This document shows, in pieces, positions 36,198-39,347 of a stretch of 63,511 bases of DNA (its first letter is position 1; each line of letters opens with the position of its first letter). Where the stretch lies: the NCBI GenBank assembly GCA_038883335.1, contig JAVZMI010000008.1:1-63511 (forward strand), written 5' to 3'. Both the position numbers and the translations under genes were made by a program. Under the pieces are notes generated by a model that ran no database searches, was not told the origin of the DNA, and saw only the letters and a list, made by a program, of their open reading frames with translations. This stretch comes from Candidatus Bathyarchaeia archaeon. GTDB taxonomy: Archaea > Thermoproteota > Bathyarchaeia > Hecatellales > Hecatellaceae.

Positions 36198-36392
36198 CTA
36201 GATCTCCTCGGTCTTACATTTAATCCGCTTTAAGATTTCCTCAACTTTATCTTGCGGCACTTTATAGGTGTAGAGGCATCGGGCTGTTCTAAGCTTTAAC
36301 TTCACTATCCCACCCACTCTCTTAATTTTACAGAGATCTGTCTTCTCTGAGAGTTTAAGAAACTTCTCCAAGTCTTTGATCTCCCTAGGCAT
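36198..36392 (-). CDS. rpl38e: Ribosomal protein L38e
   Basis: A 64-residue large-subunit protein. From ATG 36392 it reads MPREIKDLEKFLKLSEKTDL, then an IKRVGGIVKLKLRTARCLYT segment, which matches L38e of eukaryotes and TACK/Asgard archaea (MPREIxxxxxFLxxARRxDxxxVKIKK...KFKVRxSRYLYTL). The frame is open to 36506, but the upstream part is the intron-containing tRNA-Glu gene and is not coding. The tRNA 3' end lies only 30 bases upstream, so tRNA and L38e may be transcribed together. L38e supports a TACK assignment, like S26e. Confidence 0.87.
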   Translation of the reverse strand: MPREIKDLEKFLKLSEKTDLCKIKRVGGIVKLKLRTARCLYTYKVPQDKVEEILKRIKCKTEEI

Positions 36393-36422
36393 CTCTGTAC
36401 ACCGTTTAGTTTGCACTGTTAG

Positions 36423-36593
36423 TGCTCCGGGCGGGATTCTCCCGTAGATTTGCTCTACGTTTTGAACCCGCGACCACCGACTCGATTGGCCTCTCTCGGC
36501 GATCACCGCGGAGATAAGGCCGGTATACTTGACCGGGTTTTACGGCGGGCTTAAGCCTTTACGGCTCGCAACCGTCCTCTATACTACCGGAGC
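36423..36593 (-). tRNA. tRNA-Glu (UUC) interrupted by three introns
   Basis: The 171-base minus-strand segment starts GCTCCGG and ends CCGGAGC-A, a perfect 7-bp acceptor with discriminator A. Removing three segments gives an exact 76-nt tRNA: D-arm GTAT-AGCCCGGTCAA-GTAT, anticodon arm CCGGC-CTTTCGA-GTCGG with anticodon UUC, five variable bases, T-arm GCGGG-TTCAAAT-CCCGC. The intron in the D-loop is 41 bases (36539-36579 approximately, with ACGG/CCGT and GGC/GCC hairpins), the one after position 34 about 30 bases, the one in the T-loop (59/60) 24 bases and built around the hairpin CGTAGA-GCAAA-TCTACG. Body sequence agrees with archaeal tRNA-Glu. No CCA is encoded. Exact splice points may shift by a few bases. 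Confidence 0.8.
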
Positions 36594-36615
36594 ACTTCTA
36601 TTCCTAATCACGAGA

Positions 36616-36627
36616 ATAATAATAAAC
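36616..36627 (-). promoter_or_regulatory. TATA box of the tRNA-Glu gene
   Basis: GTTTATTATTAT on the minus strand, centred about 29 bases before the first tRNA base at 36593, in an otherwise A/T-rich stretch. This fits the archaeal TATA-to-start distance and supports the tRNA call. Confidence 0.5.
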
Positions 36628-36749
36628 TTTGTGAAGTTGATTCACTAAGAGTTTATATGGCGGAGTAAGATTCCTACTCTATAGGTGGCCTTATACCTTA
36701 TCTCTTATATGCTACGCTTTAGTAATTATACCGACCGAGCGGATCTTTC

Positions 36750-37736: not shown

Positions 37737-37940
37737 ACCTTCGAGGTGATATGTTTGAAGCCTCAACACAGTCTAGTGGAACTTATTTATGGGTAGACAT
37801 ATTTCGAGGTAAGTACCGTACGTATCAACCCCATAAAAGGCATTATTCTGTCGGTGGATGTTGGTTTGGTCGCACGCCCTTCTGCAAGTGTTAATTTCTA
37901 GTTGGTAAATGCTATAAACACGGATTTCTTTGTGAGGTTT

Positions 37941-39347
37941 ATGGCGTTGCGATTCTTCAACACCTTATCTAAGAGAAAAGAGGAGTTTAAACCTCTGAGG
38001 CAGGGGGAAGTCAGAGTTTACACCTGTGGCCCTACCGTATACGACTACGCACACATCGGAAACTTTAGAACCTACGTCTTCCAAGACCTTCTGAGGCGGT
38101 GGCTGGAGTATAGAGGATACAGAGTCTACCAGGTAATGAATCTTACCGACGTAGACGATAAGACGATAAAAAAATCGAGAATGGAGGGTCTCCCTCTTAG
38201 ACAGTTTACTCAGAAATACATAGACGCCTTTTTTGAAGATTTAGAAAAGTTGAAGATAAAGAAGGCAGAAGTCTATCCGAGGGCAACCGAGCATTTAGCC
38301 GATATGGTTAACCTCATCAAGAGTCTCCTTCAAAGTGGATACGCTTACATGGGTGATGATCGCTCCATATACTTCGATGTATCGAAGTTCAAGGGGTATG
38401 GAAAACTTTCGGGGCTGAAAGTTGGAGGTCTCAAAGCTGGCGCTAGGGTCAAGAATGATTTGTATGGTAAGGGAGAGCCGCGAGACTTCGCGCTGTGGAA
38501 AGCTTGGAGTGAAGAAGACGGTGATGTATACTGGGAAACAGAGTTGGGGAAGGGTAGACCTGGGTGGCACATTGAGTGCTCGGCTATGTCCATGAAATAT
38601 TTGGGGGAGACCTTCGATATCCATAGCGGAGGTATCGACCTCATCTTCCCACACCACGAGAATGAGATCGCTCAGAGTGAGGCCGCTACCGGTAAGCCCC
38701 TCGCCAACTACTGGCTCCACTGCGAGCACCTCTTGGTAGATGGGAGAAAGATGTCAAAGTCTCTCGGCAACTTCTACACTCTAAGAGATCTTCTAGATAA
38801 GGGCTACAGCCCGGCTGCTATACGTTACGTCTTACTCTCCACACACTACAGACGCTATCTCAACTTCACCTTCCAAAGCTTAGATGCTGCCACTAGCACT
38901 CTGGAAAGGGTGGGAGAATTTTTCACAAAGTTAAGGGAGGCAAGTGGTGGAGGAAGAAGTAGGGAGATTAATGGTCTATTGGAGGCTGTTGAACGTGGCT
39001 TCTGTGAAGCTATGGACGACGACCTTGACATAAACACAGCCCTTGCACACCTCTTCAAGTTCATACGGAGGGTAAATGTGCTCCTTAGAGAGGGTACGGT
39101 AAGTAAGGGCGATGCGGAAAAGATCCACAGTTTGATGATGTCTCTCAATAGAGTCCTCGGCATAATAGATGGAGTGCCAGTTGCCGAGAGCCTTCCGGAG
39201 GAGATTCTAGACATGATTAAAAGAAGGGAGGAGGCACGGCGGCGTAAAGATTGGGCTACGGCAGACCAGCTCAGATCGCTGCTGCAAGGTAGAGGCATCA
39301 TCCTTGAGGACACTCCAACAGGAGTGAAAGTAAAGAAGAAGTTTTAA
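37941..39347 (+). CDS. cysS: Cysteinyl-tRNA synthetase
   Basis: Charges tRNA-Cys. A class I synthetase of 468 residues from ATG 37941: the zinc/ATP site VYTCGPTVYDYAHIGNFRTY carries the HIGN (HIGH) motif, GRPGWHIECSAMSMKYLG and IFPHHENEIAQSEA supply the zinc ligands, and HLLVDGRKMSKSLGNFYTLRDLL the KMSKS loop. A DALR-type helical C-terminal domain follows. The frame opens at 37902, but ATG 37941 is preceded by GTGAGGTTT and starts at the conserved MALRFFNTLSKRKEEF. Having CysRS means the SepRS/SepCysS route is not required. Confidence 0.95.
   Translation: MALRFFNTLSKRKEEFKPLRQGEVRVYTCGPTVYDYAHIGNFRTYVFQDLLRRWLEYRGYRVYQVMNLTDVDDKTIKKSRMEGLPLRQFTQKYIDAFFEDLEKLKIKKAEVYPRATEHLADMVNLIKSLLQSGYAYMGDDRSIYFDVSKFKGYGKLSGLKVGGLKAGARVKNDLYGKGEPRDFALWKAWSEEDGDVYWETELGKGRPGWHIECSAMSMKYLGETFDIHSGGIDLIFPHHENEIAQSEAATGKPLANYWLHCEHLLVDGRKMSKSLGNFYTLRDLLDKGYSPAAIRYVLLSTHYRRYLNFTFQSLDAATSTLERVGEFFTKLREASGGGRSREINGLLEAVERGFCEAMDDDLDINTALAHLFKFIRRVNVLLREGTVSKGDAEKIHSLMMSLNRVLGIIDGVPVAESLPEEILDMIKRREEARRRKDWATADQLRSLLQGRGIILEDTPTGVKVKKKF

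What the first reader, a model, noticed from the sequence alone, without database searches (positions are those of the whole stretch)
36423..36593. tRNA-Glu gene split by three introns, hidden under a false ORF
Seen: a perfect 7-bp acceptor brackets 171 bases, and removal of 41, 30 and 24 bases gives an exact 76-nt tRNA-Glu(UUC) with every stem paired. Known: multiple tRNA introns at non-canonical sites are mainly described in Thermoproteales and a few other archaea. Standard tRNA finders may miss a gene interrupted in the D-loop, at 34/35 and in the T-loop; the locus also carries an ORF that would be called as an N-terminal extension of L38e. The anticodon-loop site (34/35) is unusual and its bulge-helix-bulge could not be confirmed by eye.
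Basis: partly seen in the sequence, partly recalled or inferred. Interest (0 to 1): 0.85.

Follow-up and report, generated by a model that had tools for sequence, protein, structure and literature searches.

The report
Archaeal glutamate tRNA gene, three introns
This archaeon's only detected gene for the glutamate tRNA that reads GAA codons is cut by three short introns, so standard finders miss it; close relatives, some without introns, confirm the reading, but three-intron archaeal tRNAs, including this very one, are already known.

Summary
Confirmed, and mostly ordinary for its kind. On the minus strand (36593 to 36423) four exons of 15+22+25+14 nt, split by introns of 41, 30 and 24 nt, join into a 76-nt tRNA-Glu(UUC). 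Same-family genomes prove the exons: they carry this tRNA with no intron, with only the D-loop intron at the same site, or with only a 37/38 intron, differing by 2-5 nt. No intact copy was found in the 98.9%-complete genome, so it is not a decayed duplicate. All three introns fit archaeal splicing-endonuclease geometry (relaxed bulge-helix-bulge). The genome encodes a catalytic and a non-catalytic endonuclease subunit, the former with the lysine loop linked to relaxed substrates, plus RtcB. Three-intron pre-tRNA-Glu(UUC) is published for Pyrobaculum calidifontis, so this is a new member of a known kind, and 34/35 is not unusual in this lineage. A side finding is more novel: one relative (G095) appears to need four introns in this gene, against a published maximum of three. 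No RNA data were available; splicing itself is inferred.

The parts
36579..36593 (-). exon 1, tRNA positions 1-15 (GCTCCGGTAGTATAG)
   Evidence: identical in intronless G005/G003
36538..36578 (-). intron 1, 41 nt, D-loop 15/16; HBh'-like: U11-A, A12-U, U13-G helix, bulge AG|A, inner stem GG(A)CGG/CCGCC
   Evidence: same site in same-family G001 with a different inner stem; the inner stem with one bulged A was read by eye
36516..36537 (-). exon 2, positions 16-34, ending with U34, the first anticodon base
36486..36515 (-). intron 2, 30 nt, between anticodon bases 34 and 35; central helix GGCC(29-32):GGCC, bulges UU|A and AA|U, inner stem UCUC/GAGA
   Evidence: recurs in 8 families of the class
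36461..36485 (-). exon 3, positions 35-59
36437..36460 (-). intron 3, 24 nt, T-loop 59/60; hBHBh' with T-stem, 3-bp central helix plus A57.G mismatch, bulges AA|A and AA|U, inner stem CGUAGA/UCUACG
   Evidence: similar intron at the same site of tRNA-Glu(CUC), G000:C5
36423..36436 (-). exon 4, positions 60-73 (A73 at 36423; CCA not encoded)
36615..36630 (-). AT-rich AAAGTTTATTATTATT, probable BRE/TATA promoter element about 22-37 nt upstream
   Evidence: similar AT-rich element at a similar distance in several other tRNA genes of the genome, e.g. Val(UAC); promoter function inferred
36198..36392 (-). ribosomal protein L38e gene, true start ATG 36392, 30 bp after the tRNA
36198..36506 (-). false 102-aa GTG ORF that extends L38e back into the tRNA gene

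Best explanation
A functional single-copy tRNA-Glu(UUC) gene. It is transcribed as a precursor holding the 171-nt interrupted tRNA. The heterotetrameric splicing endonuclease cuts three relaxed bulge-helix-bulge sites (D-loop 15/16, anticodon 34/35, T-loop 59/60) and RtcB joins the exons into the 76-nt tRNA that reads GAA. Gene structure and site geometry are shown; expression, cleavage, ligation and order of splicing are inferred.
For: Spliced alignment far above chance. The predicted product differs by 2-5 nt from the tRNA-Glu(UUC) of three same-family genera that have no intron, only the D-loop intron or only a 37/38 intron. No other tRNA-Glu(UUC) was found in the genome, while GAA is used 442 times in 37 window ORFs. 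All three introns fit cleavage two bases into each 3-nt bulge. The stem of the 34/35 intron shows compensatory changes in all 5 pairs; covariation score 0.484 against 0.148 in shuffles (0/500), and no slid version exceeds 0.096. The genome has one EndA subunit with catalytic Tyr, His and Lys and the crenarchaeal-loop Lys of A. pernix EndA, and one without the His, plus RtcB.
Against: No RNA evidence. The D-loop and T-loop central helices have only 3 pairs plus a mismatch. The minimum-energy fold of the whole precursor does not show all three sites at once; sequential splicing would be needed. 'No second copy' rests on a draft genome in 18 contigs. The helix GGCC:GGCC was fixed by the search pattern for most relatives, so its constancy there is not evidence.
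Confidence: 0.95

Rival explanations
1. A decayed tRNA-Glu copy invaded by sequence, no longer spliced.
For: Three insertions and no detection by standard finders.
Against: All cloverleaf stems intact, product nearly identical to relatives, no replacement gene found, splice geometry kept at all sites.
Confidence: 0.03
2. Anticodon intron shifted by one base, giving loop CUUACGA and tRNA-Val(UAC).
For: The same intron length also allows this register (sequence).
Against: The genome has an intronless tRNA-Val(UAC) (L010); the body matches tRNA-Glu in four genomes; the splice geometry places the cut after U34.
Confidence: 0.01
3. Part of the gene is trans-spliced or split rather than spliced in cis.
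For: Split tRNA-Glu genes exist in N. equitans and C. maquilingensis (PMC4390854; PMC4090602).
Against: All four exons are contiguous, in order, and on one strand; introns are 24-41 nt with closed hairpins.
Confidence: 0.01

Closest known systems
Three-intron pre-tRNA-Glu(UUC) of Pyrobaculum calidifontis (Sugahara et al. 2008, as reported in PMC4390854)
   Same: Same isoacceptor, three introns. A genome of another class of the phylum (G272, L184, unnamed by the tool) shows tRNA-Glu(UUC) with D-loop, 34/35 and T-loop introns.
   Different: Different lineage and intron sequences; the intron sites of the published gene could not be read here (paper not held). Whether G272 is that species is unknown.
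Multi-intron tRNAs of Asgard Atabeyarchaeia and Freyarchaeia (PMC11291895)
   Same: Most tRNAs with introns, often at non-canonical sites, over half with several.
   Different: Another phylum; no comparison of sites was made here.
Canonical 37/38 BHB tRNA intron
   Same: Same endonuclease geometry; seen in the same gene of same-family genome G004 (L174).
   Different: The window gene has none at 37/38.

Membership tests
Archaeal BHB-type tRNA introns | Removal restores a standard cloverleaf tRNA | tested here: met
Archaeal BHB-type tRNA introns | Splice sites in 3-nt bulges about a central helix (strict BHB: 4 bp; relaxed hBH/HBh' accepted) | tested here: met
   4 bp at 34/35 (HBh' type), 3 bp plus mismatch at 15/16 and 59/60; only 59/60 keeps the outer helix too
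Archaeal BHB-type tRNA introns | Endonuclease able to cut relaxed motifs, (alpha-beta)2 or epsilon2 type | tested here: met
   two EndA paralogs, catalytic His only in one, crenarchaeal-loop Lys aligned to A. pernix K44; quaternary structure not tested
Archaeal BHB-type tRNA introns | Spliced in vivo | not testable with these tools
   no RNA reads
Multi-intron archaeal tRNA genes (two or three introns) | More than one intron in one tRNA gene | tested here: met
   three introns
Split or permuted tRNA genes | Exons on separate transcripts or in changed order | tested here: not met
   exons contiguous and in order

The most novel reading that the evidence does not exclude
tRNA-Glu(UUC) is an intron hot spot in this archaeal class: an intron inside the anticodon (34/35) is kept across at least 8 families, and in one relative (G095, L153) the gene needs four introns (D-loop, 34/35, 53/54, 59/60), one more than the maximum reported in the literature read here.
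Probability: 0.7. Interest if true: 0.4.

Novelty: new member of a known kind. Interest (0 to 1): 0.3.

Why it matters
It extends multi-intron tRNAs to another archaeal lineage and gives a family-level series (none, D-loop only, 37/38 only, three introns) in which gain and loss can be followed in one gene. It also warns that tRNA counts, completeness estimates and protein starts (here L38e) can be wrong in such genomes unless finders allow several introns.

Tried and rejected
Linkage of tRNA-Glu to L38e: not kept at other Glu loci. Pattern hits in the class and phylum that lie outside tRNAs were discarded by reading their context. The T-loop-intron pattern search found no further tRNAs; its other hits were a non-tRNA stretch and a CRISPR-like array. 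A Rfam DUF805b match at 36671-36699 is below the gathering score and ignored.

Full report
Observation. The minus strand from 36593 to 36423 reads GCTCCGGTAGTATAG [41] CCCGGTCAAGTATACCGGCCTT [30] TCGAGTCGGTGGTCGCGGGTTCAAA [24] TCCCGCCCGGAGCA. ARAGORN and Rfam report no tRNA in the window, even at a permissive threshold. A spliced alignment with an independent reference scores 53.0 here, against -4.0 elsewhere in the window and at most 0.5 in 40 resampled windows.

Comparative proof. The window lies in G000 (1.22 Mb, 18 contigs, 98.9% complete). In the same family, G003 and G005 carry this tRNA without introns, G001 carries only the D-loop intron at the same site 15/16, and G004 carries only a 37/38 intron. 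The joined exons of the window differ from these by 2 to 5 nt.

Only copy. The Rfam tRNA model finds 27 tRNAs in the genome; the ARAGORN reading of these loci gives none as Glu. DNA and pattern searches find one more tRNA-Glu, the CUC isoacceptor at C5:17602-17717, itself with a D-loop and a T-loop intron. GAA makes up 442 of 16,284 codons in 37 long window ORFs, so the gene should be needed (inference).

Splice sites. In the canonical case the central 4-bp helix includes the first two anticodon bases and the cut falls in 3-nt bulges (PMC4090602); for an intron at 37/38 this puts the cut two bases into the bulge (my derivation). The same rule applied here gives GGCC(29-32):GGCC with bulges UU|A and AA|U for 34/35, three pairs plus an A.G mismatch at 59/60 with the T-stem as outer helix, and three pairs plus a G.A mismatch at 15/16. 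In 16 distinct 34/35 introns the inner stem has compensatory changes in all five pairs; covariation 0.484 against 0.148 shuffled, and at most 0.096 when slid. Contiguous inner stem averages 5.1 bp against 0.66 in shuffles. The T-loop introns of Glu(UUC) and Glu(CUC) in this genome share site and layout, consistent with copying between tRNA genes (inference).

Distribution. The 34/35 intron occurs in genomes of families f1, f2, f4, f16, f17, f19, f20 and f24 of the class and in tRNA-Glu of G272 in another class, which also has D-loop and T-loop introns. The class search was by a fixed motif, so it undercounts.

Machinery. Two splicing endonuclease paralogs: one aligns with A. pernix EndA including Tyr, His, Lys and the loop Lys linked to relaxed-motif cleavage (loop role in PMC6379350); the other lacks the His. 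RtcB is present. This fits the (alpha-beta)2 type that PMC6379350 says cuts relaxed motifs efficiently.

Known context. Archaeal tRNAs with up to three introns are established (PMC8450103), P. calidifontis pre-tRNA-Glu(UUC) is named as a three-intron case (PMC4390854), and intron-rich tRNA sets at non-canonical sites are reported in Asgard archaea (PMC11291895). The finding is real and a new member of a known kind. The more novel leads are in relatives: a four-intron gene in G095 and f19 genes with two introns about 3 nt apart in the anticodon loop.

Noticed in passing
L153 (G095:C107, minus strand, around 155597-155630): tRNA-Glu(UUC) that needs four introns: D-loop about 17 nt (exact site unresolved), 34/35 24 nt, 53/54 30 nt, 59/60 22 nt. 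The two T-arm introns both have full 4-bp central helices; no single-intron solution exists for the T arm. Reported maximum is three.
   Followed up: partly
L141, L142, L144-L147, L165 (family f19): tRNA-Glu(UUC) with a 34/35 intron and a second intron near 37/38, leaving an exon of about 3 nt (UCG), plus a T-loop intron. The second intron does not fit the usual splice geometry; in some, its AGCGGC pairs with exon GCCGUU.
   Followed up: partly
L136 / L173 (G000:C5:17602-17717, minus strand): tRNA-Glu(CUC) of the same genome, also missed by Rfam, with a D-loop and a T-loop intron.
   Followed up: partly
G000, whole assembly: Rfam finds only 27 tRNAs in a 98.9% complete genome; many more tRNAs are probably hidden by non-canonical introns.
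   Followed up: no
L193 (G000:C3, near 487-526): CRISPR-like repeat GATGCAGAACGAAAATCCCAACAAAGGGAATTGAAAG with spacers.
   Followed up: no
window 37902-39347, plus strand: Cysteinyl-tRNA synthetase whose nearest relatives (61-63%) are mostly Hydrothermarchaeota-type archaea, followed by scattered archaea and bacteria; probably horizontally acquired.
   Followed up: no
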